Positions 23,716 through 62,895 of a stretch of 64,000 nucleotides of DNA are shown one piece after another. The position numbers and the translations under genes were made by a program. Numbering within the stretch: position 1 is the stretch's first letter; every line of letters starts with the position of its first letter. The stretch spans positions 207,536 to 271,535 of the forward strand of contig JAKUCV010002229.1 in assembly GCA_028386065.3 (NCBI GenBank), given 5' to 3'. Origin of the DNA: Turnera subulata. Its lineage: Eukaryota; Streptophyta; Magnoliopsida; Malpighiales; Passifloraceae. The notes beneath the pieces were generated by a model. The model was not told the DNA's origin and ran no database searches. It saw nothing but the letters and a program-made list of their open reading frames with translations.

Positions 23716-23876
23716 AAGAGAATTACTTCAACCAGATGCAAGTGGAAAAAATTAATTTTACAGTCACATCTCACGAAGCCTTACTACCGCCAAGAGCTCA
23801 GAGTCAGACTACAGCCACGCTCAGTTGTATTTGGAATTAAAATAGGAAAGGGGATGTGATTATTAACACAACTATT

Positions 23877-24480
23877 TGTTGTAAGTTGTTGTTATTTTGG
23901 CAATCCCACGATGGGAAGTGTGGTAAGGGGGTATGAAAATGCTATAAAAGAAACCCCTCTCTTTCCCTTTAGAATCATCCCAAAATTAGAGTATAATTGT
24001 ATCCTAATAATTGTAATAAATACTCTTCTTCTCTTAGTAAAAAGAGCAGACCCTTTTTTATTGGTGTTCCGGAGACGTAGGCAAAATTGGCCGAAATCCG
24101 TTATCAATTTTTGAGTGTGTTCTTCTTTTATTATTCCGCCCTTTAATTTCCGCATTTGTTTATTTTGCTTAGTATTCAACATTGGCTGGCTAAGCCGCAT
24201 TATCTTTTTCTTGGTTGGCAAAGCTACCTTGTTTAATTTGTTGGCCGACTAAGCCGCCTTTATTGGGTATATGTTGTGAATTATAACACTGTGCAAGTGA
24301 GTCCTGTCTAGGAGGCTGGGTTTTAAGTGAATCACTGTTCCTCCAGTCTTTCCTGGGGATTTATCTTGGAATGATAATTCTGTCTAAGGAGATAGGCTAG
24401 GCCATCTTTCCTGGGAATTATCGAATCAGTTCAATTCACTAGTTTGTTGTAGTGGGGAATTTACCCGAGTTTCCCCAACA
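23877..24480 (+). repeat. Tork-1 5' LTR
   Basis: TGTTGTAAGTTGTTG to TTTCCCCAACA. Contains a run of ggccg(g/a)ctaagccgc-type imperfect repeats near 24180-24260. Compared with the other LTR it lacks a few bases at the cccac(atc)gatggg site. Confidence 0.93.
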
Positions 24481-24551: not shown

Positions 24552-27420
24552 ATGGCGGGAGCAGGTTCAAAACAGGCTACATCAAGTACACAGTCAGGAG
24601 AGATGGCTTCTACATCCAGATGGTCGAGGATCCTAGTATCTAGTTCGAAGCTTACTGTGGAGATATTTGACGGTACCGGTCATTTTGGCATGTGGCAGTG
24701 TGAGGTCGTTGACTCGCTATTCTAGCAGGGACTTGATGTTTTTATTGAAGAAGAGAAACCTGACGATATCAGTAACAAGGAGTGGGCCGACGTAAACAAG
24801 TTGGCGTGCGGAACAATTCGATCGTGTTTGTCCAGGGGGCAGAAATATGCATTCAAAAATGAAGTTTCTGCACACAAAATGTGGAAGGCATTGGAAGACA
24901 CCTTCTTGAGGAAGAGTGGTCAGAATAAGCTTCTGATGAAGAAGAGATTGTTCCGGTTCGAGTATCGACCAGGTTCTACGATGAATGAACACATTACTTT
25001 GTTTAAAAAATTAGTAGCAAACCTGTTCAATTTAGATGTTATATTTGAAGATGAAGACTTGGCGTTGATGCTGTTATCATCTCTTCCCGATGAATTCGAG
25101 CACCTGGAGACTACGCTACTTCATGGGAAGGAGAATGTATCATTGGAGGCTGTATCTTCTGCTTTGTATAGTCACGAGTTGAGACAACAAGATAAAGTGA
25201 AGAACAAAGCACCTGCAGCAGATGAAGCCTTAGTGGCTAGAGGACAACAGCAAGGCCAGTCAAAGGGAAGAAGAGGAAGATCCAAATCAAGAAGCAAAGT
25301 GCCAAAGATGAGTGTGCCTTTTGTCATGAGAAAGGACATTGGAAGAAAGGCTGTCCGAAGTTGAAAAAGAAGGGAAAGACTCCACAAGATGCAAATGTTG
25401 CAGAATGCAAGAGTGATGCAGAATCAGACACTTCTTTAGTTGCTTCACCTTCAACATCACACGTTGATGAGTGGATTTTGGATTCTGGTTGCACCTACCA
25501 TATGTGCCCCATTCGGGAATGGTTCTTTGACCTTGAAGAGCTCAATGGCGGGGTTGTTTTCATGGGCAATGACAATCCATGTAAAACAGCAAGGATAGGT
25601 TCAATCAAGTTGAAAAATCATGATGGATCCACTAGAATTTTGAAAGATGTTCGATATGTTCCTAAGTTGAAGAAGAATATCATTTCTTTGGGGGCCTTAG
25701 AATCAAAAGGCCTAGTTGTCACTATCCGAGATGGAATTCTTAAAGAAACATCAGGAGCATTGGTGATGTTAAAAGGCTTGAGGAAGAATAATCTGTATTA
25801 CTACCAAGGTAGTACAGTAATTGGGGCAGTTGCAGCAGTAACTTCTGGAAGCAAGAAGGATGCAGAGGCAACAAAGCTATGGCATATGCGTTTGGGACAT
25901 GCTGGTGAAAAATCCTTGCAGTTTCTTGCCAAGCAGGGATTGTTGAAAGGTACAAAGACTTGAAAATTGGAATTTTGTGAGCATTGTGTTCTGGGAAAGC
26001 AACGAAGAGTGAAGTTTGGCACTACTATCCATGATACTAAAGGGATTTTGGACTATGTGCATTCAGATTTGTGGGGACCTGCCAAGACTCCATCTCTTAG
26101 AGGTAGACACTATTTTGTCACTTTTGTTGATGATTTTTCCAGAAGAGTGTGGGTGTTTACAATGAAGAAGAAGGATGAAGTGCTTGGGATTTTCCTTATG
26201 TGGAAAAATCAGGTTGAGAACCAAACAGGAAGAAAGATTAAAGTTCTCCGAACAGACAATGGTGGAGAATATACGAGTGATCCTTTCTTGAAGATATGCC
26301 AAGATTGTGGCATAGTTCGGCAATTCACAGTCAAAAAAACACCACAGCAGAACGGGGTGTCAGAGCGTATGAACAAGACATTGGTGGAGAAAGTTCGTTG
26401 TATGTTGTCTAATGCTGGGCTAGGCAGAAATTTTTGGGCTGAGGCTGTGACATATGCTCAACATCTTGTAAATCGATTGCCACATTCTGCTTTAGGTGGC
26501 AAGGCCCCTTTGGAGGTATGGTCTGGGAAACCTGCTACAGATTATGATTCTTTGCGTGTGTTTGGCTCCACTGCATACTACCATGTGAATCAATCAAAGT
26601 TAGATCCACGAGCAAAGAAGGCTCTATTTATGGGTCTTAATGCTGGAGTGAAGGGATACCATCTTTTATGTCTAGAGGCAAAGAAGACTATTATCAACAG
26701 GGATGTTACCTTTGATGAATCTGCCATGTTGACTATGGTAAATCGAGAAGGAGTTGGTGGTACTTCACAGCAGGTGGAGTGTGTATCAAAGCAGGTGGAG
26801 TTTGAGCCTACTATGGTGATCCCAACTAAGAGCACCAATGGTGACTCTCCATTGATAGAGGAAGAGTCAGATGAAGAAGAGGTTCACCTCCGACTCAAGA
26901 ACCTACGCAGCTGTTCGAGTCAATTGCCACTAGTAGACCAAGACGAGAAAGGAGAAAACCAGAACGTCTCATTAAAACGGTGGCCTATGCACTTCCAGTC
27001 GTTGATGATGTTCCTTTCACTTTTTCAGAAGCCATTCGGAGTTCTGAAAGTAGCAGTTGGAAAGAGAAAATAGAGGAGGAGATGAAATCTCTTTAGAAGA
27101 ACAAGACATGGAAGTTGACACAACTACCAAAGGGAAAGAAGGCAATTGGATGGAAATGGGTATTTGCGAAAAAAGAAGGATTTCTTGACAAGAATAATGT
27201 TCGCTACAAGGCAAGATTGGTGGCTAAAGGCTACGCTCAGAAGGAGATAATTGATTGTAATAAGGTATTTTCTCCAGTTGTGAAGCATTCCTCCATTAGA
27301 ATTCTGTTGGCCTTGGTAGCACAGTTGAATTTGGAGCTAGCTCAACTTGATGTGAAGATTGCATTCTTACATGGTGACTTGAAGGAGGAAATCTATATGA
27401 CTCCGCCCGATGGATACAAA
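24552..27420 (+). pseudogene. Tork-1 gag-pol, 5' portion (gag, zinc knuckle, protease, integrase, RT start)
   Basis: Starts MAGAGSKQATSS at 24552, with a stop at 24723. Gag continues through HKMWKALEDTFLRK and SSLPDEFEHLETTLLHGK. A frameshift before the zinc knuckle near 25310 leaves a CAFCHEKGHWKKGC-type reading in a second frame. Protease shows the DSG site in WILDSGCTYHMC (about 25480). GAG-pre-integrase has LWHMRLGHAGEKS and, after a stop at 25961, CEHCVLGKQ. The integrase catalytic residues are visible as D in HSDLWGP, D in LRTDNGGEY and E in QNGVSERMN. The RT begins with KAIGWKWVFAKK and ends in DGDLKEE-like LHGDLKEEIYMTPPDGY at the SIRE-1 insertion. Several stops and frameshifts make it non-functional. 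Confidence 0.9.
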
Positions 27421-28394
27421 TGTTAGAAATAGTGTTTTGCTAATGCCTTCTTGTCTCATACAGGTTTTGATATTGACAAACCGGACATTAATTCAAAATG
27501 ACGACAAACCCGAGGCAAAAAGAAATCTCTCCCGATGCAAAAAGAAATGACTCAAAGAGAAGAAATGTAAAGTGAAGAAGAGCACAAGAATTGAAGCACA
27601 AGAAGTTTAGGAACCTAATTGTAAAAGGTTAACACTCAAATTCTTCTAAGATGTTAGCTCAAACATAATCAATTTTTTCTCATGCATAGCATTCTTTTTA
27701 TCAATCATAAAAATGGTTTTTGAGCACTAAACATCGATGTTCCTGCCTTCTAAAAGGTTTATCAAAAGTGGCAGTAGCTCAAAACATCGATGTTTGCATC
27801 CCAAACATCGATGTTCTCCTAACCGATTGCATTTCAAGATGTTTTGCAAAAACACTATTCAAACATTGATGTTCACTTTTCAAACAAAGATGTTCTACTG
27901 TTCAAACATCGATGTTCATAGTTTAAACATCGATGTTCTACTGTTCATTGTTTTAGTGACCGTTGGACCACAACATCGATGTTTAAGTTTAGAACATCGA
28001 TGTTTTAGTGACCGTTGGCCCAATAATTCATATTTATTGGCCAAACATCGATGTTCTAATGCTAAACATCGATGTTGTGCCGTTTTAAGTAGAAACCTTT
28101 TGCATCTTTCTATGTTGTTTTGTCTAAAGGTGTTTTGGAACGATTCCCCAACGGTCATATAAGTTTTTTGACATATAAATAGAGCATTTACACCTCTGTT
28201 TATTAAAAATCAACTCTCCATACATTTATCATTCATTGATACACATTCATTAAAGTTTTTGTGAGCTAATATCCTTGAGATTTGAGAGAGTTACCTTATA
28301 GTGCTTATCTTGTTACTCATATCCACTCTTTGAGAGAGCTTTTGTTTGAGTGATTTTAAAGTGTTGTTCATACACCTTAAGGGAGGATTGTTCC
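27421..28394 (+). repeat. SIRE-1 5' LTR, first piece
   Basis: TGTTAGAAATAGTG up to gggaggattgttcc, followed by the GyA insert. The last five bases gttcc are the TSD of that insert. It contains the AACATCGATGTT array. Confidence 0.92.
27729..28077. repeat. AACATCGATGTT palindrome array (SIRE-1 5' LTR)
   Basis: Eleven copies or near copies of the 12-bp palindrome AACATCGATGTT, mostly in pairs with about 22 bp between centres. One partner of the first pair is missing compared with the 3' LTR, and a few members carry single changes (for example AACATTGATGTT). The repeated His-Arg-Cys and Asn-Ile-Asp-Val codons in frames across it are a by-product of this motif. Confidence 0.92.
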
Positions 28395-29708
28395 TGAAAC
28401 GCCCCGACCTGTATTTACCGTACACAGTAAACACGTGCCGGAACTGTGACAACCCAACCAAAATCAAGCCCAGCATACAGTGTGTACAACAGAAACTCGG
28501 GCCAACAGCCAAAAATTGGAAACATCATAAATAACAAAACCGGCCCAATGGCTCAATAATATCAATAAAATGCACAGCGGAAGACTTAATAACTCACAAA
28601 ATACTGTATGCGACACTGATGCAAACTATGGATCCGAGCCCTGTCCAAGGGATAACACCGCAGCCTGTCAGGAATGCACCAAACCTGTAACACAAATAAC
28701 TCATCCTACGGGATGAAAGCCCGCAGGTGAGGGGTGAGTCTGAAGTGCTCACCGACGAAGGAAAGACAATCAATATGCACACTATAACTACTCAAGTCAA
28801 ACACAGGCTAAACAGCCAAACACACCAAAACAAAGACTCGTCCCAAAACCGGTCCAAGACCAAAAGACCCAAATAAAATCCAATTTTCCAATTTTATCTT
28901 TCCGGGCCCCGTCACGGATTAGCTAGAGGTCAGACCTGGTTATGAACATATTCCGGGTGCCAGACCAAATCCAGAGAACCCAGGGATTGACATCCCAAAA
29001 ATACGAACCCAGGGATAGACATCCCAAAAATAATCACGGGATAGACATCCCAAGCATAGACATGCTTATCACATGTAACCCAGGTCAAGGCCACCACAAA
29101 ATAGTCTTAAACCATCGAGTCGTACCACTACCTATCACGTGACAATTATATTATCGTCATCAAAATCAAATCACAGGGATCGACATCCCTAACCAAAATA
29201 CCGGGATAGACATCCCTATCCAAAATCAAGGATCGACATCCTTATCACAGTTTATTATTAATCCATTTTATACTTATGGTCAAGACACGAAAATAAATAT
29301 TCAAAACCCGACGCACGGGGATAAACATCCCAAAAATACCAAATCAACATACTGGGATAAACATCCCGACAACAATCACAACAAAAGCAACAACCAACAG
29401 TGCAATAAACATCAAACACAATAACCGAGTAATACAGGCACATATTGAAGGAAATCCATCCTCACCTGATGTGTCTCTGAAACTGCTATCCGGTCAAACC
29501 TCGATACCCCTATATGTATATATAGGAACACAACAATCACTTATAATGCACAACAATAATGATTATGCATGATATCGTTTTAATTGTATTTAGACGGCTT
29601 GTCTGTTCATTTTATTATATCCATAGTTATCTTATTACCAAACAGTTCTTCCAACTTGGTGGTAATTAATTTAATCCAACGGTTATTTAATAATATAACA
29701 ATTCAAAA
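28395..29708 (-). repeat. GyA truncated 3' LTR
   Basis: TGAAACGCCCCGACCTG to caattcaaaa, nearly identical to 31608-32922. It stops abruptly where ORF-A-related sequence begins. The GyA dyad array is present at 28983-29367. Confidence 0.88.
28983..29367. repeat. GyA dyad array, copy 3
   Basis: Same series of GGGAT..ATCCC dyads, including AAGCAT-AGAC-ATGCTT and AAGGAT-CGAC-ATCCTT. The first member is GGGATTGACATCCC. Confidence 0.85.
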
Positions 29709-29787
29709 TGCATGCGTGGAGCTCTTCCCTCACATGAAAAACGTGCAAAAACTTGTAAAAGACCTAGAGAAGCAAGTAGCTCCATAG
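29709..29787 (+). pseudogene. ORF-A, copy 1: only the C-terminal tail remains
   Basis: The last 25 codons read NACVELFPHMKNVQKLVKDL then EKQVAP and a stop. They align with the end of the intact copy at 38638 (ACMGLSSQVENVRKHVNELE then KQMTS and stop), sharing A-C, L, N-V, K, V and LEKQ at the same spacing. The start was removed when this point was joined to the GyA LTR. An upstream methionine at 29584 is encoded by LTR sequence and is not part of the gene. The following sequence also resembles the 3' flank of the other ORF-A (CTTCT..TTGTAA..TTATGAAT). Confidence 0.7.
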
Positions 29788-30647
29788 AGTACTTCTTCTC
29801 CTGTTGTAAAACCTTATGAATTAAATAAAATAAGTTTCCTTTTAAATCAAAATTCTTGTATTACAAAGTTTTATGTTAAACAGAAAATCAAAACATATCA
29901 AAGCAAAATAAAAATCAGCAATAAGAATATAAAATCAATCATAAACAGATTAAAAACAAAATTCGTTTAACAAACCAAGACATAAAGAAGTTAAAACAAA
30001 AATATATTTCATGATCGGTGCTCGTATCGGACGTAAACATCCTCGAACCCAAGAAACGTGACACGTACAGCTAACGGTGACGTCTGTTTTCCCCGTGGAA
30101 AAGACATCCGTTAACTCGCACGGTGACGATCACGAGAGCGTCCTGTGTCCCTCGAAAAAAATGTACCCACTTGTTCACAGATTCCGCATGAGCCAAAATG
30201 GTCTGTCAAGTCTCGTATCTCTCCACGATGTCCGAACAGGTGTAAGCTTGTCGCACATGCGCTCTACTCGAGGTATGGTCCCATCAGTCTAGCCACAACG
30301 GTCACGGATGCGTGTGATAAAAGATGCAGGAAAATATAGTAAAACCATAAAAAGAAAGGACAAAGTAGCCAGAGCGAAAGAAAATCGTGTGTTAGAAAAG
30401 AGCTGAAAAACACTGGCATAGTAGCCCGAAAAACGTATAAAGTAACAAAGCAATAAATGAAGCAACGACAAAATTTTCAAAAAGAAAATCTTGAAAATCG
30501 AAAACAGTAATCACGCTCCCCATAAGAGTATAAAAGAAACGGAGCAGTGAGGTGTAAATCATCAAAAGCATCTAAAAGCAACAAAACATCCAGGCAACCA
30601 AAACCACAAAACCCTGAAAAACAAAACACCAACACGTCCGAAACAAC
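29788..30647 (+). promoter_or_regulatory. Region between ORF-A and ORF-B, copy 1: ORF-A 3' end and ORF-B promoter
   Basis: AT-rich ORF-A 3' flank with aattaaataaaata (about 29819), then a less AT-rich stretch with two TGACG motifs (ggtgacgtct near 30076 and ggtgacgatc near 30121). A TATA box tataaaag is at 30529-30536, 112 bp before the ORF-B start. The leader taaatcatcaaaagcatc (30555-30572) closely matches the leader of the other ORF-B copy. Confidence 0.65.
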
Positions 30648-31331
30648 ATGCCTGCTCCCTCATCCGTCTTCTTCGTCGAAGGTGCCAATCTAGGCAGAAG
30701 GAACCGACTGGCCTACAACATGGTCAACGAGCGTGCTGTAGAACTACCGAACGAGCTCGGCAGAATGCCACGTCTAGTCTTCATCGACGAACTCTACTCA
30801 TCGCGGTTCTTCACCACTCCCATGGAAGAGACGTTCTTCTTGGAGGACCATGGCACTCTGAGGACCTCCTACTACGGCTCGGCAAACTCCATCATGTTCT
30901 TCATCTTCGAAAGACTTCAGGAGTTCAACCTAGAGTCCACTTGCCACTTCCTGGAGCAGGGTACCTACTACCAACTCTCGATGACGGCCCAGAGCATGCC
31001 CAGAGTCACTCGTCTGCCCGTAACTTGGCCAAAAGCCCGACTACTGATGTGGAACTGTAGAGGAGTCGTTAGGCGTTCCCAGGAGTTCTCGTGTACCCTG
31101 AGGGACTTGAAGAACCAGTACAAGCCAAACATGGTTCTTCTGACGGAGACCCAGTGGCAACCTCAAGACGATCACGGTCTCATCCCACTCCGGTTCCCTC
31201 AAGCTAGCCGGTTCGAGCTTCCTGGCCAGAACAACGCTGGCGGCATGTGGTTCACGTGGAGCGACAACATCCAAGTCAACATCAACAACGACCCCAACAA
31301 CTTCAGGGTCAACGTCGTTCCGAGGAGATAA
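30648..31331 (+). CDS. ORF-B, copy 1: 227-aa protein with partial endonuclease/exonuclease/phosphatase-like C-terminus
   Basis: Complete frame MPAPSSVFFVEG to VNVVPRR. Residues 1-125 match nothing I know; they contain RMPRLVFIDELYSSRFF and YYGSANSIMFFI, both strictly kept in the second copy. Residues 127-215 resemble the first part of LINE-type EEP endonucleases: RLLMWNCRG (N136), LRDLKNQYKPNMVLLTET (E167) and GGMWFTW (198-204). The GDFN and SDH motifs that complete an EEP active site are absent because the protein ends first, so nuclease activity is doubtful. It lies antisense in the GyA element, with its own TATA box. The second copy (37279-37962) has the same length with no gaps and about 73% identity, including the start. 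Function unknown. It could be a captured host gene, a domesticated LINE fusion or a viral remnant. Confidence 0.8.
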   Translation: MPAPSSVFFVEGANLGRRNRLAYNMVNERAVELPNELGRMPRLVFIDELYSSRFFTTPMEETFFLEDHGTLRTSYYGSANSIMFFIFERLQEFNLESTCHFLEQGTYYQLSMTAQSMPRVTRLPVTWPKARLLMWNCRGVVRRSQEFSCTLRDLKNQYKPNMVLLTETQWQPQDDHGLIPLRFPQASRFELPGQNNAGGMWFTWSDNIQVNINNDPNNFRVNVVPRR

Positions 31332-31607
31332 ATGTATTTTCTTTTTTTTTTAAAGAAATATCAATGTAATATCTATGTTTGTAATCAAAATATTAGTATT
31401 ATTAATAATATTTATATTTCCGCTTATTTATGGCATCATTACCTCTAATGTGTATGTTCTGCGACAGCTGGCGTCCCTTGACTGGATCCATAATGCACTA
31501 ACTAAAATGATATAAAATAATAAACAAATAGAGCGAACTATGCAAACAAGAACAACAAACACACAAAGACTGCCCAACAAGACCTAACGCCCGCTCCGCT
31601 ACCAAAA
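31332..31607 (-). other. GyA leader and primer-binding site joined to ORF-B 3' flank
   Basis: The right end (31589-31607) is the primer site of GyA (minus strand TTTTGGTAGCGGAGC). A possible gag start MDPVKGRQLSQNIHIRG begins at 31491 on the minus strand. From about 31440 leftwards the sequence is AT-rich, with no retroelement character, and is taken as the ORF-B 3' flank. Confidence 0.55.
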
Positions 31608-34600
31608 TGAAACGCCCCGACCCGTATTTACCGTACACTGTAAACACGTGCCGGAACTGTGACAACCCAACCAAAATCAAGCCCAGCATACAGTGTGTAC
31701 AACAGAAACTCGGGCCCAACAGCCCAAAATAGGAAACATCATAAGTAACAAAACCGGCCCAATGGCTCAATAATATCAATAAAATGCACAGCGGAAGACT
31801 TAATAACTCACAAAACACTGTATGCGACACTGATGCAAACTATGGATCCGCGCCCTGTCCAAGAGATAACGCCGCAGCCTGTCTGGAATGCACCAAACCT
31901 GTAACACAAATAACTCATCCTACGGGATGAAAGCTCGCAGGTGAAGGGTGAGTCCGAAGTGCTCACCGACGAAGGAAAGAAAATCAATATGCACACTGTA
32001 ACTACTCAAGTCAAACACAGGCTAAATAGCCAAACACACCAAAACAAAGACTCGTCCCAAAACCGGTCCAAGACCAAAAGACCCAAATAAAATCCAATTT
32101 TCCAATTTTATCTTTCCGGGCCCCGTCACGGATTAGCTAGAAGTCAGACCTGGTTATCAACATATTCCGGGTGCCAGACCAAATCTAGAGAACCCAGGGA
32201 TCGACATCCCAAAAATACGAACCCAGGGATAGACATCCCAAAAATAATCACGGGATAGACATCCCAAGCGTAGACATGCTTATCACAAGTAACCCAGGTC
32301 AAGGCCACCACAAAATAGTCTTAAGCCATCGAGTCGTACCACTACCTATCACGTGACAATTATATTATCATCATCAAAATCAAATCACAGGGATCGACAT
32401 CCCTAACAAAAATACCAGGATAGACATCCCTATCCAAAATCAAGGATCCACATCCTTATCACAATTTATTATTAATCCATTTTATACTTATGGTCAAAAC
32501 ACGAAAATAAATATTCAAAACCCGACGCACGGGGATAAACATCCCAAAAATACCAAATCAACATACTGGGATAAACATCCCGACAACAATCACAACAAAA
32601 GCAACAACCAACAGTGCAATAAACATCAAACACAATAACCGAGTAATACAGGCACATATTGAAGGAAATCCATCCTCACCTGATGTGTCTCTGAAACTGC
32701 TATCCGGTCAAACCTCGATACCCCTATATGTATATATAGGAACACAACAATCACTTATAATGCACAACAAAAATGATTATGCATGATACCAGTTTAATTG
32801 TATTTAGACGGCTTATCTGTTCATTTTATTATATCCATAGTTATCTTATTACCAAACAGTTCTTCCAACTTGGTGGTAATTAATTTAATCCAACGGTTAT
32901 TTAATAATATAACAATTCAAAACTTGTACATACTAAGTAGTTAGATTTAATGTATAACAAAATCATTGGACGAAAATATTACAACAGTTAATGAATTAAT
33001 ATTTCAAAATAACATTACCGTTAATAAAATAAAATTTAATTAGCCTCAAAATAAATTTTGCACGGGTTATATGTGAAAATAAAATCGGTAGAAATAATTG
33101 TAATTAAACCCTTATTATTTTAGTCCAAAATAAACTCGTATATATATATAGTCAAGAATATAAATTACGATTTTTTATTATTTAGCCGATGAAAATATAG
33201 GTAATAGTAGTATTTATATAAGATTGAAATTGATAAATAAATAAGGTATGGGCCTATTATCATTTAGCCCAGAGGAACGGTAGTTAAACGTATTAGAAAC
33301 GTATTAACGTAATTAGGAAATTAAGCCCAGGGGACCTTCACTTGCGTTTAGTCCATCGGAGAAAATAATAAAACAACTTCGAATTAAATAAATAAAAGAC
33401 TTAATGAAATTACAAATTATGGGCCTTTAATTATAATTAGCCCAATTAAAACAATTAAAACCAAAAATTAAATTCAATGGGCCTTTTATGAGCCCAGGTA
33501 AAACGTAAATAAAATTAAAACAGAAATTTAAATACTATGGGCTTTTTAATAGCCCAATCAGAAAATAAAGACATAAAGTAAATAATTGCATAATAACATA
33601 AATAGAAACATAAATGAAATAATAAAAAGCATAAAATAAATAAAATCAGAATTAAATGAAACTTAAATTAAATTGCATAAAATAAAAGTATTGATTAACA
33701 TTAATTAACTTAATTAATCATTCCATTAATTATCGTTTTAATGTCCGTGTCCGTAATCGTTCGGGTTCGATAAATGATGCAAAAGGGTCCAAGGCTCGGG
33801 TTTTACCCAATTGGTCCATTTCCGAGCTCGCCGGAAATATCCCGAAGCTGCCGGAAACTCGCCGGAATCCTGCGAGGTACTGTTCACGATGGCAGCAACC
33901 CCCCCTCTGCTACTGTTCCTCTAGTTGCAACACAGCCCAAGACACCAGACCCACTACTAACACCTCCAAAGCCACGGCCACACCGTGGTGACCGGAACAC
34001 CACCCCAAAGCCATAACAACAACACCCAACCCCAACATACCCTCAATCAAACCACCCATTCATCAATCACCCTCCGACGATCAGAGCCACCACAAAACAA
34101 AACAACCCAATCAATTCAAAAACTCAAATCGATTAAAGAAAGGGAAGAGAAGAAGAAAGAGGTGTGGCCAGAGACTCACCCAGCCTTGGCTTCGTCGGCT
34201 GCGGGTCGAGGGAGGAGAAGAGAGGCAGATTGAGGGGATAGAGCAGCGCGAGGAAGAGGAAGAAAGGATGGGGCGGTCGTCGCGGTGGCGAAGGGAGAAG
34301 AAGAGGTCGGCACCGCGAGAACAGGGAAGAGAGATCGGTGGCGACTAAACCGAAGTGAGGCAGGGTCCTCGCACGAGATTCGCCGAGTGGAGGGGGCAGC
34401 TTCGACAACAGTGAGCTCTGCTTTCGGTGAAGGTCGCAAGCGAAGGCAGAGGGAGGAGACTGGTTGTAGCGGCGGGGGAAAGGCGTCGCAGTAAGGAGAA
34501 GCACCGACGGCGGCTCGCTTCTCCACGACTAGTGCGGCGGTGACGAGAAGTGGAGGGTAGAGAGGAGTTGCAGAGACGCCTCTCACAGCGGCGTCGTCCG

Positions 34601-35259
34601 GCAGGGGAAAGGATGGTGGAGGCGCGTGTGAGGATGGAGGCAGGGATGGAAAGGGAGAAAGGAAGAGGAAGATGGGAGGGATGGTGTGTGTGGGTCGGTG
34701 GTTCACAGGTGGTCTCGGTGATGGTGGAGTTTACTGGGAGAGGGAGAAGAAAAGTAAAGGAGAGGGGATGGATGTGTAGAATCGAGTAGAGGAGAGGAGA
34801 AAAAAAAATGAAGAAGAGAAAAGGAGAGAACAAAGAAAAATCAGAAGAAAGGATGGGGAAGGGAACAACAAGTCACGGGGAAACAAGGAAAGAAAGAGAG
34901 GTGGGCCGGCTGAAGAAAAATGTGGTGGCGGCTGGAAGAAGAAAACAAGGAGAAGGGGAAAGAAAAGGAAAAGTAAGGAAGAATGGCCAACGAACCGGAT
35001 TTTCGTCCCGAGTCCGAAAATACAACTTGGGCTCGAAAAATCCGATTAATACCCCTAAACGTCGTCCATGTCTCAGAATTGAAAACCGAGGCTCGATTAG
35101 TTAAAAAAATACTCCCGAGCACGGGAAAACCCTCGGTTACGAAAAACGACGCCCGATTTATCTTGAATTAATTACCCAAGATTAATTCAATAGTAAATCA
35201 TGGTAAAAAGACTTTTACAGTCCCGGTAAAAATTCAAAATTTTTACCCGGGCTGTTACA
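31608..35259 (-). repeat. GyA 5' LTR (3652 bp)
   Basis: TGAAACGCCCCGACCCG to CGGGCTGTTACA. Compared with the solo LTR at 8389-12910 it shares both ends and the dyad array. The middle (about 32700-34800) is different or highly diverged: an AT-rich part with repeated gggcctttaat/agccca segments, then a GC-rich, purine-rich part (34130-35000). Open frames within it have only low-complexity composition. Confidence 0.85.
32197..32581. repeat. GyA dyad array, copy 4
   Basis: Same series as the other arrays. Here one arm pair has drifted (AAGCGT-AGAC-ATGCTT) and one core has changed (AGGATCCACATCCT). Confidence 0.85.
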
Positions 35260-35264
35260 GTTCC

Positions 35265-35588
35265 ATTGTAGCAACTCATAGGAAGAGTGTTTTCTTTCCT
35301 TGAGAGAAGTCTTGAAGTGAGGTATCTTCAAGCAAGTAGAGCTTCGTGTGGCTCGGGCTCTAGGTTTGTATACAGTTTGTTAAGCACCAAGAAGCTTAAC
35401 CTAGATAGTGAAATCTTCGAGAGAGTCTCTCGGAGGACTGGATTAGCCACACAAGTTGTGTGTGTGAACCAGTATAAAATTCAGTGCGTCCTTCATTCTT
35501 TCAATTCCGCAATTATTTCCTGCAAGTTTTTGATTTTTTCCATAAAACGCTATTCACCCCCCTCTAGCGTAGGGCACCTGTTCTAACA
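35265..35588 (+). repeat. SIRE-1 5' LTR, second piece
   Basis: Resumes with attgtagcaactcatagg after the second copy of gttcc and ends CACCTGTTCTAACA. It matches 40861-41184 of the 3' LTR. Confidence 0.92.
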
Positions 35589-35642
35589 ATTGGTAGCGAA
35601 GCCTAACTCTCTGAAAAACTTAACCGTTTGCGAGAAACTTTG

Positions 35643-36790
35643 CATGGCTTTTTCAAGAAATTTGTATGCAGGAATCGGTGAAGGAAAATCCATTACCCGT
35701 CCACCTTTCTTCGATGGCGCCAACTACACATATTGGAAGGAGAGGATGAGGATCTTCATCTAAGCGAACAACTTCGCTCTTTGGCTAATAATAAAGAACG
35801 GAGATCAAATCCCAACAAAGAAAGTTGGTGAAGCCATCGTGACAAAGACGGAGGTGGAGTACAATGCTGAAGACATCTAGAAAGCTAAAAACAACTCCAT
35901 GGCAATCAACATGCTCTACTGTGCAGTCAACCCCGATGATTACCAAATGATCTCATGCTGCACTACCGCCAAGGAGATGTGGGACATGCTGGAAGTTACC
36001 TATGAAGAAACCAACAGCGAGGAAGAAGAAACGGCCAACCTATGTCTCATGGCACGAGAGGAAGAGCCGGAAGAGGTAAGTACTTCTCACTCAAGCGAAG
36101 AATATACTTTTGAAGAATTGCAAGATGCATTTAATGAGCTTTATGGTAAATACATTTAGGCATCTAGAACTAATAAGGGCTTAAAGAAACAAGTTGCAAC
36201 TCTAGAAAATGATATGGAGAAAGTGTCAAGTGAAAATGAAAAGCTTAGAGAAGAGAATAAGTTTTACGGAAAGAGGAGTGCTAATAAACCGGAAAGTCCA
36301 ATTAAGGAATGTGCATCATGTAAATCACTAAAGGAACAAGTTGGAGAACTTGAAACAAAAACTAGGGAGTGTTCATCATGTGAGACATTAAAAGAACAAG
36401 TTAATGAACTTGAACAACACTAAAGAAATTTAACACCCCTAAAAAAAACTTGAATTCTCTCTTAGGTACTTTGCAATCAACCAAACATGGAGTAGGTTTC
36501 AAGAATGAACCTAAGAAGAAGAAAGTTGAAAAAAAACCTAGGAAACCTATGTTTCAACATAAAGAAATCAAGGTAAGCAAAGTGCACAAACATAGGCACC
36601 ATAGTAATTATTATCAACCTAGAAGGATGCACAACCCAAACGTTATTTGCCATTATTGCAATAGAATAGGACACATTGCTCCTGTTTGCTGTACTAGGCA
36701 TAGGCATTGGGCGCAAGAAGAAGCTCATTACCGTTATGCTTCTAACCCTCAAGGACCCAAAAAGATTTGGGTACCAAAAACCCATTGATT
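35643..36790 (+). pseudogene. SIRE-1 gag (broken, internal deletion)
   Basis: Copia gag starting MAFSRNLYAGIGEGKSITRP (35643), with FFDGANYTYWKERMRIFI typical of SIRE gag. There are stops at about 35762 and 35879. It continues AINMLYCAVNPDDYQMI and KEMWDMLEVTYEETN. A deletion then joins straight to ETANLCLMAREEEPEE. Coiled-coil segments follow (36178-36420, repeated ECASCKSLKEQVGELETK / ECSSCETLKEQVNELEQ), then a basic stretch and the CCHC knuckle CHYCNRIGHIAPVC near 36650. Several stops separate these pieces. Gag packages the element RNA; this copy cannot make an intact protein. Confidence 0.88.
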
Positions 36791-36890
36791 TGTTTTGTAG
36801 GTATGCTTGAAGGCATCAAGTGTACTTTGGTACCTTGATAACGGATGCTCCGAGCACATGATCAAAGAAGCATCCAAGTTCTTGATTGAT
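36791..36890 (+). pseudogene. SIRE-1 protease remnant
   Basis: Reads WYLDNGCSEHMIKEASKF at about 36828-36881. In copia proteases the catalytic triplet is DSG; here it is DNG. The frame ends soon after, and pol is absent beyond this point. Confidence 0.7.
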
Positions 36891-37278
36891 TCTTGTTGAA
36901 ATACAAGGATAAGTGGTAACGTTGAAAATAATCATCCTTTGGTTGAAATCGTTCTATTCTAGTATACTTTTAATAGTGCTCTTAATGCTTGTTTAATCAA
37001 TTAATGCTTATTGATTATTGCATACATATCATTCTTGAGTAATAAATAGTCTTAAGCATCCTATCTTACCTCGGTTGAAAAAGAGCTTAGAAGTGAATTA
37101 AATCTGCATAAAGTAAAATTTGGGTAGTAGGTTCATATCCAAATATTACAACCCGAGTAAACAAGATAGTTTCTTTTTCGCATCAATCATAATAGATCAA
37201 GTCAAGGTCTATCATTAAACATTCATAAAGAAATAATACACATGCTTAAACATAAATATTTTATTATTTTTATTTGTT
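36891..37278. other. Junction between SIRE-1 remnant and the antisense unit
   Basis: AT-rich, no clear coding. A fragment reading ISGNVENNHPLVEIV just after 36900 may be the last trace of SIRE-1 protease. The part near 37240-37278 holds AATAAA-like signals on the minus strand (AATAAAAATAATAAAAT) just after the ORF-B stop. Confidence 0.45.
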
Positions 37279-37962
37279 TTAACGGTTGGGTACAGCAGTG
37301 ACTGAGAAACTGTTAGGGACATTAGCAATATTTACCCTAATGCTATCATTCCAAGAAAACCACATTGCGCCCGAATTGTTTTGGCCATGGAGTTCGAACC
37401 GATTTGCTGGAGGAAAACGAAGCGGGAGGACACCGTGATTATCTCCAGGCTTCCACAAGGTCTCTGTGAGAAGAACCATGTTGGGCCTGTACTGGTTCTT
37501 CAGATCTCTTAAAGTTCGTGTGAAATCTTGAGAGCGCCTAGTGATTCCTCTACAATTCCAAACCAGAAGGCGAGCTTTTGGCCAAGTGGGTGGTAAGCCA
37601 GTTGTCCGCGGAACGCTCTGAGCAGTCATTGAAATTCGGTAATAGCTGCCCTTATTCAGATTTTGGCAAGAAGGCTCCAGCCTGAACTCCTGAAGTCTAT
37701 CAGAGATGAAGAACATGATGGAATTAGCCGAGCCATAGAAGGAAGCTCGCAGGGCACTTTGATGCTCCAGGAAGATTGTCTCCTCCATGGGTGTGACAAA
37801 GAACCGAGACGAGTAGAGCTCATCAACGAAGACCAAACGAGGCATCCTCCCAAGCTCGTTTGGCAGCTCCCCTTGTTGCTCATTTATTAGGCTATAGGCT
37901 AATCGATTCCTTCTTCCTAAGGAGGCTCCCTCAATAAAGAAGACAGATGATGGAGCAGGCAT
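37279..37962 (-). CDS. ORF-B, copy 2: 227-aa protein with partial EEP-like C-terminus
   Basis: Complete minus-strand frame MPAPSSVFFIEGAS to VTAVPNR, gap-free against copy 1. About 62 of 227 residues differ, many conservatively (I/V, K/R, D/E, S/T). The invariant blocks are NELGRMPRLVF, DELYSSRFF, YGSANSIMFFI, SMTAQS, TWPKARLL, WNCRG, TLRDLKNQY and PNMVLLTET. The EEP-like residues N136 and E167 are retained. It is antisense to SIRE-1, occupying the place of pol, with ORF-A upstream on the same strand. Intactness after this much divergence suggests selection on the protein in the ancestry of both copies. No signal peptide or membrane segment is evident. Function unknown. Confidence 0.82.
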   Translation of the reverse strand: MPAPSSVFFIEGASLGRRNRLAYSLINEQQGELPNELGRMPRLVFVDELYSSRFFVTPMEETIFLEHQSALRASFYGSANSIMFFISDRLQEFRLEPSCQNLNKGSYYRISMTAQSVPRTTGLPPTWPKARLLVWNCRGITRRSQDFTRTLRDLKNQYRPNMVLLTETLWKPGDNHGVLPLRFPPANRFELHGQNNSGAMWFSWNDSIRVNIANVPNSFSVTAVPNR

Positions 37963-38637
37963 TTTTGTCTTAATGTGGTTTGAGTATCTCTCTCTCGCTG
38001 AATCGTATTTTCTTTAAATGCTTTTGATTATTTACTAACCATTGCTTTGCCATTTATAGAAATACGATTACCTATTTTTCAAAGTCTAGACCTTACCTAT
38101 TTTTCGATAAACGGTAAAGCAAACCTCTCTCCTCACAAAACTACAAATTGTATACGCTCCTCAAGGCTCCTCTTTTTGAAAATCTTTACCACTGGCTACA
38201 TTATTACTCTTGTCACGTTGCATGTTTTCTGGCAACAAACACTTGTGTTTTCTAGCTCACTTCTCACATGCATTACTTTTTCACTCTGGCTATCTTGGCT
38301 CTTGAATAAAGGGATACGAATCCCAAAAAAGTCGCTTTTTTGCTCATGTGGGGTTTATGAACAAGTGGTTCCTAATTATTGTCATTAATTTGCCGTGCAT
38401 TATGACGTCATTTTTTGGCTTACACGAATAATGAACATCGTTTTATTAAGGAATATTTGATTTCTATTATTGCAAGAAATTCGTGATTTCACCACTTATA
38501 TTCTTTTTGGTTACTAATAACAGGCTTGATTTTATTGAATCTTATATCATTCCTACCATTTATGTTTAAAAACAAGCTTGATTAAGAAAAAGGAACTACT
38601 AATTTATTCATTCATAAAATATTACAATAGAAGCAAT
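37963..38637 (-). promoter_or_regulatory. Region between ORF-A and ORF-B, copy 2: ORF-B promoter and ORF-A 3' flank
   Basis: On the minus strand a TATA box CTATAAATG lies at 38051-38059, about 90 bp before the ORF-B start. It is followed by TAAATAATCAAAAGCATTTA (within 38012-38034), which matches the leader of copy 1. A bZIP-type palindrome TGACGTCA is at 38403-38410. The ORF-A 3' flank (38560-38637) carries GAATGAATAAATTAG, comparable with the same place in copy 1. Confidence 0.65.
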
Positions 38638-39072
38638 CTATGAAGTCATTTGCTTCTCCAGTTCGTTTACATGTTTGCGGACATTCTCAACCTGGGAGGA
38701 AAGTCCCATACAAGCCATCTCGATCTGCATCACAGCAGAGCTGATCTTCTTCAGGGCTAAGTTTAGATGCCCAAGTGTCTGTAATGGTGTACTACTGTGA
38801 GCTATCCTTTTGCCCTTTGGATCATCAGTGTCTTTGGTGACCGGCTTCTTTTGACGCTTGTGAGATATGGCCGTGTCTTCCAAATGACCAGGGACATTCC
38901 TTCGCTTGCGGCATTTCTTCGGCTTTTCCTCAACAACGGAACCACCAAAGAGAGGTGCACCAAAAGTATAACTTAACTCCTCAGAATCAGAGGTAGTTTT
39001 AGTCCTCAGTGGTGAGTCCATGGTTTGAGAAATGCTTTGCCAAGCATGAGGATGGTATTTATAAGCAGACAT
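38638..39072 (-). CDS. ORF-A, copy 2: basic coiled-coil protein (127 or 144 aa)
   Basis: The longest frame starts at 39072 (144 aa), but a TATA box GCTTATAAATACC lies just inside it (39053-39065), so translation more likely starts at Met18 (39021, MDSPLRTKTTSD), giving 127 aa. Residues 50-58 (KPKKCRKRR) and 71-77 (HKRQKKP) look like a bipartite nuclear signal. Residues about 102-142 have heptad-spaced hydrophobics (ALKKISSAVMQIEMACMGL, VENVRKHVNELEKQM) typical of a coiled coil. I know no family. A C-terminal tail of the same protein precedes ORF-B in the GyA copy, so the A-B order is shared. It probably oligomerises and enters the nucleus; that is inference from composition. Confidence 0.7.
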   Translation of the reverse strand: MSAYKYHPHAWQSISQTMDSPLRTKTTSDSEELSYTFGAPLFGGSVVEEKPKKCRKRRNVPGHLEDTAISHKRQKKPVTKDTDDPKGKRIAHSSTPLQTLGHLNLALKKISSAVMQIEMACMGLSSQVENVRKHVNELEKQMTS

Positions 39073-39153
39073 GATGACGGTAAGGGTGTATACGAAATTT
39101 CATGTTGGAAGAATGTGGAATACTCGAGAGGGTTGCTGACGTAAGCCATGACG
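39051..39153 (-). promoter_or_regulatory. ORF-A promoter with as-1-like element
   Basis: TGACGTAAGCCATGACG at 39137-39153 differs at two positions from the as-1 element core TGACGTAAGGGATGACG of the 35S promoter type, which binds TGA-class bZIP factors in stress and salicylate responses. A TATA box lies about 75 bp away at 39053-39065. The two TGACG boxes have the as-1 spacing. Confidence 0.6.
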
Positions 39154-39319
39154 AAATTACTAAAACTGTAAACAAAGAATCACTCTACATTGATCTAATT
39201 TGTATTTTTATTGTATTATCTTTTACTGACTTGAGCGGCGGAGTGTCTTCTAAGTCGTTTTTGCAGGTACCCCTCATTTAGGCAAAAAGATAGGGGGAAT
39301 AAGACTTGCCAAGTTAGCT

Positions 39320-39572
39320 AACATCGATGTTCAGAAACCAAACATCGATGTTTGATGAAGTTCAACCTGCGCCAACTTGGACCAGAGGCTGAAAACATCG
39401 ATGTTCAAAGACCAAATATCGATGTTTATTGAAATTTAGCTTGCATTAAATCGGACCAGAGGCTGAAAACATCGATGTTTAGAGCCAAACATCGATGTTC
39501 AGTGTAGTGCATGCTCAAAACTTTGACAGAATACATGCAACATTGATGTTCCGTATCAAAACATTGATGTTC
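39320..39572. repeat. AACATCGATGTT palindrome array (SIRE-1 3' internal region)
   Basis: Four pairs of the palindrome, 21-22 bp between centres, lie between the antisense unit and the polypurine tract. The last pair reads AACATTGATGTT. They are outside the LTR, so the array extends into the internal region. Confidence 0.9.
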
Positions 39573-39808
39573 AGGGAGTATCGACTCTTTTGGTATCTTT
39601 TGATTATGTCTCTTCAATTTAATCTTTAGTTTGCCATTGTTATTCTTTTTGCTAATGCCAAAAGGGGGAAGATTAAATAAGAGTATATGTATATGCATCA
39701 AGTTAGGGGGAATCCCGTTTTGACAAACGTAGGGGAATTAACCTCATTTTGAATCCATACACTTGACATATACTCTTCTTGATTTGTCATTATCAAAAAG
39801 GGGGAAAT

Positions 39809-41184
39809 TGTTAGAAATAGTGTTTTGCTAATGCCTCCTTGTCTTATACAGGTTTTGATATTGACAAACCGGATATTGATTCAAAATGACGACAAACCCG
39901 AGGCAAAAAGAAATCACTCCTGAAGCAAAAAGAAATGACTCAAAGAGAAGAAATGTAAAGTGAAGAAGAGCATAAGAATTGAAGAACAAGAAGTTTAGGA
40001 ACCTAATTGTAAAAGGTTAACACTCAAATTCTTCTAAGATGTTAGCTCAAACATAATCAATTTTTTCTCTGCATAACATTCTTTTCATCAATCATGAAAA
40101 TGGTTTTTGAGCACTAAACATCGATGTTGTGTTTCTAAACATCGATGTTCCTGCCTTCTAAAAGGTTTATCAAAAGCGGCAGTAGCTCAAAACATCGATG
40201 TTGGCATCCCCAACATCGATGTTCTCCTAACCGATTGCATTTCAAGATGTCTTGCAGAAACACTGTTCAAACATCGATGTTCACTTTTCAAACAACGATG
40301 TTCTACTGTTCAAACATCGATGTTCAAAGTTTAAACATCGATGTTCTACTGTTCATTATTTTAAATTGTTTTGGCAGTGCTCCAAAACATCGATGCTCAA
40401 GTTTAAAACATCGATGTTTTAGTGACCGTTGGACCACAACATCGATGTTTAAGTTTAAAACATCGATGGTTTAGTGACCGTTGGCCCAATAATTCATATT
40501 TATTGGCCAAACATCGATGTTCTAATGCTAAACATCGATGTTGTGCCGTTTTAAGCAGAAGCCTTTTGCATCTTTCTATGTTATTTTGTCTAAAGGTGTT
40601 TTAGAATGATTCCCCAACAGTCATATAAGTTTTTAGACATATAAATAGAGCATTTACACCTCTGTTTATTAACAATCAACTCTCCATACATTTATCATTC
40701 ATTGATACACATTCATTCAAGTTTTTATGAGCTAATATCCTTGAGATTTGAGAGAGTTGCCTTATAGTGCTTATCTTGTTACTCATATCCACTCTTTGAG
40801 AGAGCTTTTGTTTGAGTGATTTTAAAGTGTTGTTCATACACCTTAAGGGAGGATTGTTCCCTTGTAGCAACTCATAGGAAGAGTGTTTTCTTTCCTTGAG
40901 AGAAGTCTTGAAGTGAGGTATCTTCAAGCAAGTAGAGCTTCGTGTGACTCGGGCTCTAGGTTTGTATACGGTTTGTTAAGCACCCGGAAGCTTAACCTAG
41001 ATAGTGAAATCTTCGAGAGAGTCTCTCGGAGGACTGGATTAGCCACACAAGTTGTGTGTGTGAACTAGTATAAAATTCGATGTGTCCTTCATTCTTTCAA
41101 TTCCGCAATTATTTCCTGCAAGTTTTTGATTTTGTCCATAAAACGCTATTCACCCCCCTCTAGCGTAGGGCACCTGTTCTAACA
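39809..41184 (+). repeat. SIRE-1 3' LTR (1376 bp)
   Basis: TGTTAGAAATAGTG to CCTGTTCTAACA, preceded by aaaaagggggaaat and followed by the TSD acaaa. It is nearly identical to the split 5' LTR. It contains direct-repeat pairs with the AACATCGATGTT array. Confidence 0.93.
40116..40542. repeat. AACATCGATGTT palindrome array (SIRE-1 3' LTR)
   Basis: Fourteen members arranged as seven pairs. Centre spacing within pairs is 21-23 bp. Eleven are perfect 12-bp palindromes and three have one change (AACAACGATGTT, AACATCGATGCT, AACATCGATGGT). Confidence 0.93.
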
Positions 41185-42351: not shown

Positions 42352-42456
42352 AGTTGGCGTCAGATGGCGCGAGTTGGAAGCACCGGGAAGGCTATTCTTT
42401 GTTTGACTGAGAAGATGGAGATTTGGTGGGATTACAAATAACACCAAGGTGGAGAT

Positions 42457-43064
42457 TGTTGTAAGTTGTTGTTATTTTGGCAATCCCACATCGATGGGAA
42501 GTGTGGTAAGGGGGGTATGAAAATGCTATAAAAGAAACCCCTCTCCTTCCCTTTAGAATCATCCCAAAATTAGAGTATAATTGTATCCTAATAATTGTAC
42601 TAAATACTCTTCTTCTCTTAGTAAAAAGAGCAGAACCTTTTCTAGTGGTGCTCCGGAGACGTAGGCAAAATTGGCCGAACTCTGTTATCAATTTTTGAGT
42701 GTGTTCTTCTTTTACTATTTCGCCCTTTAATTTCCGCATTTGTTTATTTTGCTTAGTATTCAACATTGGCCGGCTAAGCCACCTTATCTCTTTCTTGGCT
42801 GGCAAAGCCGCCTTGTTTAATTTGTTGGCCGGCTAAGCTGCCTTTGTCGGGTATAGGTTGTGAATTATAACACTGTGCAAGTGAGTCCTGTCTAGGAAGC
42901 TAGGTTTTAAGTGAACCACTGTTCCTCCAGTCTTTCCTGGGAATTTATCTTGGAATGATAATTCTGTCTAAGGAGATAGGCTAGGCCATCTTTCCTGGGA
43001 ATTATCGAATCAGTTCAATTCACTAGTTTGTTGTAGTGGGAAATTTACCCAAGTTTTCCCAACA
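42457..43064 (+). repeat. Tork-1 3' LTR
   Basis: TGTTGTAAGTTG to TTTTCCCAACA, preceded by the purine tract and followed by the TSD ctatt. It matches the 5' LTR closely. Confidence 0.93.
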
Positions 43065-47600: not shown

Positions 47601-48436
47601 CTTTTTCAAAAAGCTGAAATTGCCAGTAAAAGTGTCTTCAATTTTGCTCCACATACCCTTAAGAATCTCTTTGAAGTTAGGATGTTTCCACCAGCAATCC
47701 ATAAATTTGAAGGGCTTAAAGCCCCAATCAACTTTATCTTGGGTGAGGAGAAGTGGCAATGGTCAGAGGAGCGACGCCATCCTGCTTTCAACTGCAAGGT
47801 ACTGAATTCTATGCTCCACTCTGGTTCACACATTGCTCAATCAATCTTGCTGGCTGCAATATTAATTGACCAAGTAAATTGACGACCGAATAGGGGGAAT
47901 TCTTGCAATTGCAACGAGTTCATAAAACTCCTCAAAGCACCAGCACCTCGTGGGTAGAATGTACCACTACGTCTTTCCTCGGGCAATAAAGTTTCGTTAA
48001 AATCTCCAATGACCAGCCAAGGAGATTTGAAAGTATCTTTGAGTCTGAGAAGCTGCTTCCACATATCAATTCTTTCCTCTAAAATTACACTCCCGTAAAA
48101 CACAACAAATACAAAATTTTGAGCCAGAAAAGCCACAAGATCCTTCCACTAAAATCAAATTTGTGCTTTTAATTGATTGGAAACAGACAAAGTAAGAAGA
48201 GTCCCAAATCAGTATAAGACCACCAGCATTACCCGAGGCATCAACTGTTAAAAATTCTTTATCTTTTACATCCCAAACTTTATTGCAAAAAGCAATGTCA
48301 AGTTCGCAGAGGAATACTGTCTTCGCATTAACGTCTCGAGCCATAGAGTTCACCTGTTTATGCTTTAGGGAAGAACCGACACCACGAATATTCCAAGAAA
48401 GTACACTAAACATATAAAATAAGAAGTACTCTATTA
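44640..48436 (-). mobile_element. LINE-A: L1-type retrotransposon, ORF2 only
   Basis: Flanked by a perfect 14-bp TSD GGTTATGATCAACT (44626-44639 and 48437-48450). The poly(A) tail appears as a T run at 44640-44655. The 5' end lies only 23 bp upstream of the ORF2 methionine, so ORF1 was lost by 5' truncation at insertion. It inserted in the 3' flank of a duplicated pectinesterase gene end. Confidence 0.95.
44751..48413 (-). pseudogene. LINE-A ORF2 (endonuclease, reverse transcriptase, zinc-binding end), broken
   Basis: Starts MFSVLSWNIRGVGSSLKHKQ. The EEP endonuclease has WNIRG, FLCEL, AGGLILIW and, after a frameshift near 48100, WLVIGDFNET and QFTWS. It continues in a third frame as DKVDWGFKPFKFMDCWW. 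RT spans about 46323-47200: GSKALGPDGFNLSFY, VPKKMGATSFDDFRPITLI, WKIDFKKAFDSILW, KGIKKGDSLSPFLF and SADDTLIFS. The usual F of the FADD active-site box is S here. Downstream frames carry the zf-RVT region (MCPFCSTHLETINHLFLHC, about 45120) and the C-terminal tail. At least four frameshifts or stops make it inactive. Confidence 0.92.
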
Positions 48437-54275: not shown

Positions 54276-54319
54276 GATAGGAAAAAACGAAGGCACGCAT
54301 AACTGACCTGAGCTATTGA

Positions 54320-57716: not shown

Positions 57717-57768
57717 GTTCTACCCCACTTAAGGAAATTTCGTCCTCGAAATTACAAGACATGAAGCT
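57717..57768 (-). other. Tekay-1 polypurine tract region, copy 1
   Basis: The minus strand reads TTAAGTGGGGTAGAAC directly before the LTR. This is the usual chromovirus 3' end, with GAGGACGAAATTTCCTTAAG just upstream. Confidence 0.75.
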
Positions 57769-61300: not shown

Positions 61301-61389
61301 CTAAAACTCGAAAATACCTCAAGGGTAAAATTGGAATGAAAATTCCAAAAATTCCGAAAAACCAAATTATGAAAATTCGGGGCGTTACA
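58347..61389 (-). repeat. Tekay-1 LTR2 (3043 bp)
   Basis: TGAAACACCCGTGTCCC to CGGGGCGTTACA, very close to LTR1. Differences include a shorter GA run near 59090 and scattered single-base changes. Confidence 0.9.

Positions 61390-62862: not shown

Positions 62863-62895
<33 letters not shown>

What the first reader, a model, noticed from the sequence alone, without database searches (positions are those of the whole stretch)
29709..39153. A two-gene antisense unit carried by two unrelated LTR retrotransposons
ORF-A (basic coiled-coil) and ORF-B (227 aa) occur in the same order and spacing in the internal region of a GyA element (plus strand, 29709-31331) and of a SIRE-type copia element (minus strand, 39072-37279). 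In both cases they are antisense to the carrier and ordered primer site - ORF-B - ORF-A - polypurine side. ORF-B is complete in both, has no gaps, and is about 73% identical by my hand count, with mostly conservative changes. All gag-pol genes around them are broken or gone. Protein conservation at this divergence suggests selection in the ancestry of the unit, either as an accessory gene set of retroelements or as a mobile or viral unit that enters them. I know of no described family with this pair.
Basis: partly seen in the sequence, partly recalled or inferred. Interest (0 to 1): 0.9.

Follow-up and report, generated by a model that had tools for sequence, protein, structure and literature searches.

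The report
Antisense gene pair in two retrotransposons
Two jumping genetic elements with unrelated ends, in what is likely a plant genome, carry on their reverse strand the same gene pair (complete in one, mostly missing its first gene in the other), whose second protein has been kept alike by natural selection and which likely acts as a helper gene set for the elements.

Summary
The core observation holds. Two intact 227-aa ORF-B copies (30648-31331 +; 37279-37962 -), 165/227 identical without gaps, lie antisense in two LTR elements whose LTRs share no detectable similarity. A codon model gives omega 0.099 (2dlnL 146 against 1), equal in both halves. Both insertions are young (LTR divergence 0.026-0.036) but the B copies are saturated at silent sites, so the protein was conserved long before these insertions. 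New: the A-B spacers share colinear conserved blocks (0 of 468 window controls score as high), including B's TATA-proximal region; gene A has a TATA box and an as-1-like site; B's last ~100 aa weakly but repeatedly resemble the first half of an EEP endonuclease domain, so B likely lacks nuclease activity. No relative of B was found in a protein collection that holds many plants. Antisense accessory ORFs of plant LTR elements are a known kind (Grande gene23, Retand, pvRetro ORF2); this is a new protein family and a two-gene variant in unrelated carriers. Function is inferred. The host genome could not be searched.

The parts
28395..35259 (-). GyA carrier element, nested in the left LTR of the SIRE-like element; TSD GTTCC
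31608..35259 (-). GyA LTR, whole (3652 bp); the other copy is 28395-29708, truncated
31593..31604 (-). GyA primer-binding-site-like TGGTAGCGGAGC
   Evidence: read from sequence
29710..29787 (+). ORF-A remnant in GyA: last 25 codons and stop
   Evidence: 11 of 25 aa identical to the SIRE-like copy
30529..30534 (+). TATAAA upstream of ORF-B (GyA)
   Evidence: promoter role inferred
30554..30576 (+). conserved 23-bp block after the TATA box of B (21 of 23 with 38035-38013)
30366..30485 (+). conserved upstream block of B (70% over 124 columns with 38292-38171)
30648..31331 (+). ORF-B, GyA copy, 227 aa
27421..41184 (+). SIRE-like copia carrier; TSD ACAAA; split by GyA
35644..36900 (+). broken gag and start of protease of the SIRE-like carrier
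37279..37962 (-). ORF-B, SIRE-like copy, 227 aa
38053..38058 (-). TATAAA upstream of ORF-B (SIRE-like copy)
   Evidence: promoter role inferred
38638..39072 (-). ORF-A, whole, 144 aa (127 aa from the second Met at 39021)
39058..39063 (-). TATAAA of gene A
   Evidence: promoter role inferred
39137..39153 (+). as-1-like double site TGACG N7 TGACG, 73 bp upstream of the gene A TATA box
   Evidence: 1 found, 0.01 expected
39795..39808 (+). polypurine tract of the SIRE-like carrier
   Evidence: read from sequence

Best explanation
Two LTR retrotransposons with dissimilar LTRs carry, antisense to themselves, copies of one two-gene unit (A then B; A nearly all deleted in one carrier), and the unit likely works as a self-promoted accessory gene set of the elements whose proteins are predicted to act for the carrier in the nucleus. 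Shown: B has evolved under purifying selection (omega about 0.1) for far longer than the age of either insertion, and the A-B spacer, including the region next to B's TATA box, is partly conserved. Inferred: A and B are transcribed from their own promoters (TATA boxes, TGACG-type sites) independently of the LTR; A (basic stretches, long C-terminal helix) is a nuclear coiled-coil protein that binds chromatin or nucleic acid; B, a new N-terminal domain joined to the first half of an EEP endonuclease fold, is a non-catalytic binding partner. Together they would shield carrier copies from host silencing or regulate their replication. The unit likely passed between element families long ago by recombination between element RNAs or DNAs.
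For: omega 0.099, 2dlnL 146, same in residues 1-125 and 126-227; 1000 neutral simulations give 47% mean aa identity (maximum 53%) and 5.9 stops against 73% and 0 observed (three other estimators 0.09-0.12). LTR K2P 0.026 (GyA) and 0.029-0.036 (SIRE-like) against dS 1.5-2.2. Best spacer score 39 against at most 30 in 200 shuffles and at most 30 in 236 plus 232 window stretches; 3 colinear blocks against 0 in each of 118 controls. as-1-like site: 1 against 0.01 expected. ORF-A helix 96-143; 45 residues with pLDDT 90 or more. EEP: Pfam E 0.038 for one B copy; an EEP model is the only NCBIfam hit of both copies (E 0.15, 0.11); the profile match to window LINE endonuclease pieces was reached by 1 of 200 shuffles. 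Precedent: Grande gene23 is an antisense nuclear protein with its own promoter (PMC7264820, parts 1-2 of 3 read).
Against: No expression, localisation or activity data. ORF-A is whole only once, so the pair rests on one complete copy plus a 25-codon remnant and the spacer. Both carriers are broken. EEP similarity is below every curated cut-off, the GyA copy of B has no Pfam hit even at E 10, a direct BLASTP of B to a window LINE piece is not significant (E 0.32) and hhalign gives it only 2-3% probability. AlphaFold gave no usable model of B (mean pLDDT 29). TGACGTC is not enriched in the window (3 against 3.25 expected). Own promoters rest on motifs and conservation only.
Confidence: 0.52

Rival explanations
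1. Two independent captures, by two elements, of diverged members of an ordinary host gene family that sits as an A-B tandem in the host; the constraint reflects host function, not element function.
For: Would also explain omega 0.1, intact B frames in young insertions, and own promoters and terminators. The host genome could not be searched (genome search did not complete).
Against: No relative of B in the protein collection (35 candidates at 1e-3, 265 at E 10, none passing), though the same collection returned 2436 relatives of the window's copia integrase (best 120 listed; every organism named there is a plant). Two captures in the same antisense orientation with B nearest the primer site would be a coincidence.
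Confidence: 0.25
2. The unit is a mobile DNA or the remnant of a virus that inserts on its own into LTR elements.
For: Compact two-gene layout with TATA boxes and an as-1-like site of the kind recalled from CaMV 35S and Agrobacterium opine promoters.
Against: No terminal repeats bound the unit in either carrier; the only inverted matches (12 nt at 37246/38558, 14 nt at 30349/31333, an 18-nt palindrome at 31388) differ between copies and lie around B only or beside it. No viral relatives in IMG/VR. No replication or transposition gene seen.
Confidence: 0.13
3. The unit acts as antisense RNA or dsRNA source and the ORFs are incidental.
For: Antisense transcripts can regulate LTR elements (discussed in PMC7264820, part 2).
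Against: Codon-level constraint: differences 48/32/117 at codon positions 1/2/3 and omega 0.1.
Confidence: 0.04
4. A and B are decayed env-like or gag-derived pieces of the elements themselves, inverted by rearrangement.
For: 74% of SIRE elements carry an extra forward 3' ORF (PMC6317226, passages).
Against: No gag, env-like or Athila ORF-1 family match at E 10; reversed in both carriers; coding constraint retained in B.
Confidence: 0.03

Closest known systems
Grande gene23 and the RIRE2/Wallabi/Gran3 antisense ORFs (aORF-3R)
   Same: Antisense ORF in the 3' internal region; Grande's is nuclear and has its own promoter; present in most copies (PMC7264820, parts 1-2 of 3 read)
   Different: One gene there, two here; sequence relation could not be tested; one carrier here is SIRE-like copia
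Retand antisense ORFs with Transposase_28 (PF04195)
   Same: Antisense accessory ORFs between pol and 3' LTR, function unknown, possible DNA binding (PMC11963269, abstract and passages)
   Different: Neither A nor B matches PF04195 at E 10
Common bean pvRetro ORF2 (15 Ty3-gypsy families; SMC-like in some)
   Same: Opposite orientation to pol, shared by several element families (PMC4093653, passages)
   Different: The 13 of 15 families with RT fall in one gypsy clade; single ORF of 211-939 aa in the table seen; A has no SMC match
Bdelloid rotifer ORF3 pool shared by LTR and Penelope-like elements
   Same: Same accessory ORFs in unlike retroelement classes, judged exchanged between them; one GDSL line lost catalytic residues (PMC5408684, passages and section 3.4)
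   Different: Animal elements, other folds, not described as antisense in what I read
EEP endonuclease domain of plant LINE ORF2
   Same: WNxRG and LLTET-like motifs and a GG/W segment in B residues 130-212
   Different: B's match ends at position 89 of 225; the second half with its catalytic residues (recalled) is absent; statistical support is weak

Membership tests
Antisense accessory ORF of plant LTR retrotransposons (aORF-3R) | ORF antisense to gag-pol inside the internal region | tested here: met
   carriers oriented by primer site, TSD and LTRs; gag of the SIRE-like carrier on the opposite strand
[quoted passage not shown]
   SIRE-like: lies 3' of gag and the start of protease, rest of pol gone; GyA: no gag-pol left
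Antisense accessory ORF of plant LTR retrotransposons (aORF-3R) | present in most copies of the family | not testable with these tools
   The genome search did not complete (10 tries)
Antisense accessory ORF of plant LTR retrotransposons (aORF-3R) | protein-level conservation | tested here: met
   omega 0.099 for B; A too short to say
Retand TRP28 proteins | PF04195 domain | tested here: not met
   no match at E 10
Ogre plant-mobile-domain ORFs / Athila ORF-1 | PF10536 / PF03078 domain | tested here: not met
   no match at E 10
EEP nuclease | significant profile match | tested here: inconclusive
   E 0.038 (14.2 bits, cut-off 24.5) for one copy
EEP nuclease | complete catalytic domain | tested here: not met
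   match covers profile positions 2-89 of 225
DNA transposon | terminal inverted repeats bounding the unit | tested here: not met
   only short 12-14 nt inverted matches around B
SIRE lineage (carrier) | RT/INT phylogeny | not testable with these tools
   RT and INT are missing; assignment rests on recalled polypurine-tract and LTR marks

The most novel reading that the evidence does not exclude
An antisense two-gene cassette with its own as-1-type promoters that has moved as a block between unrelated LTR retrotransposon superfamilies (SIRE copia and a gypsy-like large LTR element), encoding a nuclear coiled-coil protein and a dead half-endonuclease that together keep host silencing off their carriers; the half EEP domain would pair with itself to rebuild the fold as a binding, not cutting, module.
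Probability: 0.22. Interest if true: 0.82.

Novelty: new variant of a known kind. Interest (0 to 1): 0.57.

Why it matters
Antisense accessory ORFs of plant retrotransposons have been reported since the late 1990s and their function is still unknown (PMC7264820). Here one such protein is under strong measured constraint (omega 0.1), comes with a second gene and conserved spacer DNA, and sits in two carriers with unrelated LTRs. That gives a compact, testable pair and argues that elements keep or trade such genes. At 227 and 127-144 codons both ORFs fall under the 250-codon cut-off of a large plant survey (PMC6317226), so more of this kind may have been overlooked.

Tried and rejected
Chance ORF: rejected. 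Relatives of B elsewhere: none in the protein collection, plasmids (GyA copy only), IMG/VR, GTDB genomes or by profile in PDB; the four phmmer PDB hits (LRR kinases, RPN5; E 0.047-0.96) are weak and I take them as unrelated. Relatives of A: none in IMG/VR; BCAS2, COG6 and IcmG/DotF matches (E 0.005-0.05, below cut-offs) taken as coiled-coil cross-matches. Structure of B: unusable, so no fold search was run. Rfam and tRNA scans of the window: nothing. Bacterial promoter scan: not meaningful here. Similarity of the unit beyond B's stop codon: nothing better than E 0.59. Literature: searches returned 0 papers; the listings were checked by title and start of abstract, and none named a SIRE antisense ORF with an endonuclease domain. 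PMC9289625 was seen in passages only. Steinbauerova 2011 and Gomez-Orte 2013 were not read; they are known here through the papers that cite them.
Full report
What is there. The window holds a nested pair of LTR elements. The outer one (27421-41184, plus strand, TSD ACAAA) is SIRE-like: an AAAAAGGGGGAAAT polypurine tract before TGTTAG..., a gag remnant with a CCHC knuckle, and the start of a copia protease, broken by stops and frameshifts (the name SIRE is recalled from these marks and was not tested by a tree, as RT and INT are gone). GyA has no gag or pol, so its superfamily is open. The two sets of LTRs do not match each other in blastn at 1e-8.

The gene pair. ORF-B is intact in both carriers, 227 aa, 165 identical residues, no gaps. 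ORF-A is whole only in the SIRE-like carrier (38638-39072, minus). So the pair is real, but one of its two copies has lost most of gene A.

Selection. Differences between the two B copies by codon position are 48/32/117. Estimates of omega are 0.119, 0.090 and 0.104 by three methods and 0.099 in a GY94 fit, with 2dlnL 146 against omega = 1; residues 1-125 and 126-227 each give 0.099. In 1000 neutral simulations at the same nucleotide distance, protein identity averaged 46.9% (maximum 52.9%) with 5.9 stops on average; 0.1% had no stop. Silent sites are saturated (dS 1.5-2.2; NG86 undefined), so omega is approximate but far from 1. LTR divergence is only 0.026 for GyA and 0.029-0.036 for the SIRE-like carrier. 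If rates are alike, the two B lines split tens of times earlier than either insertion and stayed constrained in between. That constraint could have been felt in elements or in host genes captured twice.

Shared regulatory DNA. The A-B spacers (859 and 675 bp) are mostly unalignable but share four blocks in the same order: the region just after the A stop with AATAAA-like signals, a 32-bp block and a 124-column block upstream of B, and a 23-bp block just after the TATA box of B (21 of 23 identical). The best local score (39) was reached by 0 of 200 shuffles and by 0 of 236 and 0 of 232 window stretches; at the stricter setting three colinear blocks remain, against none in each of 118 controls. 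All TGACGTC sites of the window (two places, three strand matches) lie in the two spacers, although the total is as expected by chance (3 against 3.25); this was noticed after the fact. Gene A in the SIRE-like carrier has TATAAA at 39063-39058 and, 73 bp further up, TGACGTAAGCCATGACG, an as-1-like double site (1 found, 0.01 expected; the name as-1 is recalled). The TATA box overlaps the first codons of the 144-aa reading, so the true start is likely the second Met (127 aa). These marks point to two self-promoted genes; transcription itself is untested.

What the proteins are. B: no Pfam match for the GyA copy (E 10); for the SIRE-like copy PF03372 (Exo_endo_phos) at E 0.038, residues 134-216 on positions 2-89 of 225, below cut-off. 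The only NCBIfam hit of both copies is an EEP model at E 0.15 and 0.11. A profile of the two B copies against endonuclease pieces of two LINEs in the window scored above 199 of 200 column shuffles, but with an hhalign probability of only 3% (1.6%), and plain BLASTP to one piece gave E 0.32. In the Pfam scan the LINE pieces themselves matched nothing at E 10, so a weak score does not speak against homology. I take B's last 100 residues as likely the first half of an EEP domain, hence without the catalytic second half. AlphaFold gave no model of use (mean pLDDT 29). A: basic stretches (KKCRKRR, HKRQKK; 22 K+R against 15 D+E in 127 aa) and one confident long C-terminal helix, 96-143; its family hits look like coiled-coil noise.

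Distribution. No relative of B in the protein collection of 5.8 billion (0 of 35 candidates at 1e-3; 0 of 265 at E 10 with both copies). As a control the window's copia integrase found 2436, so plants are covered. Limits: the tool needs shared 5-residue words, repeat-masked annotations may lack such ORFs, and the window's own genome seems to be left out. IMG/VR, GTDB genomes and plasmids gave nothing. The genome search for the own genome did not complete in ten tries. ORF-A was not searched in the protein collection.

Comparison with the known. Antisense accessory ORFs in plant LTR elements are established: Grande gene23 (nuclear, own promoter), RIRE2, Retand, PvRetro13 (PMC7264820, parts 1-2 of 3 read); the 13 of 15 pvRetro families with ORF2 that encode RT fall in one gypsy clade (PMC4093653, passages); 97% of Retand clusters carry antisense TRP28 ORFs (PMC11963269, abstract and passages). 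A plant-wide survey counted ORFs of 250 codons or more and reports forward 3' ORFs in 74% of SIRE elements (PMC6317226, passages), so ORFs of this size would have been missed. Exchange of accessory ORFs between unlike retroelements is described in rotifers (PMC5408684, passages and section 3.4). The pair here is the same kind of thing, with a new protein family, a second gene, conserved spacer DNA and carriers with unrelated LTRs, one of them SIRE-like.

Verdict. Observation partly confirmed; selection on B strongly supported; accessory-gene reading most likely (about 0.52), double host capture the main rival (0.25). New variant of a known kind.

Noticed in passing
27421-28394, 39320-40542: SIRE-like LTRs and the 3' internal part hold many copies of the palindrome AACATCGATGTT, within longer repeated units (67-83% alike).
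   Followed up: no
54666-58099, 58347-61740, 62124-64000: Three related long segments, the first two 97.8% identical over 3.4 kb; an integrase C-terminal piece with SH3_Tf2-1 lies at 61485-62252.
   Followed up: partly
45079-47762 and 50850-54344, minus: Two broken LINEs with RVT_1; their endonuclease pieces served as comparison.
   Followed up: partly
8390-12910: Degenerate relative of the GyA LTR (89-91% in matched parts) with an internal 1.7 kb tandem duplication (96.6%, 8821-10534 / 10580-12292); no A-B unit.
   Followed up: partly
20647-22224: Direct repeats of a unit with TGTTGGCGCCGGGAGTAGCCCG, and a 400-bp stretch 20844-21243 that is 97-99% like 9408-9807 and 11167-11566.
   Followed up: no
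23876-24480 and 42456-43064: Repeat pair (94.6%) that looks like the LTRs of an outer copia element into whose reverse transcriptase gene the SIRE-like element inserted; gag 24726-25364, integrase 25964-27073.
   Followed up: partly
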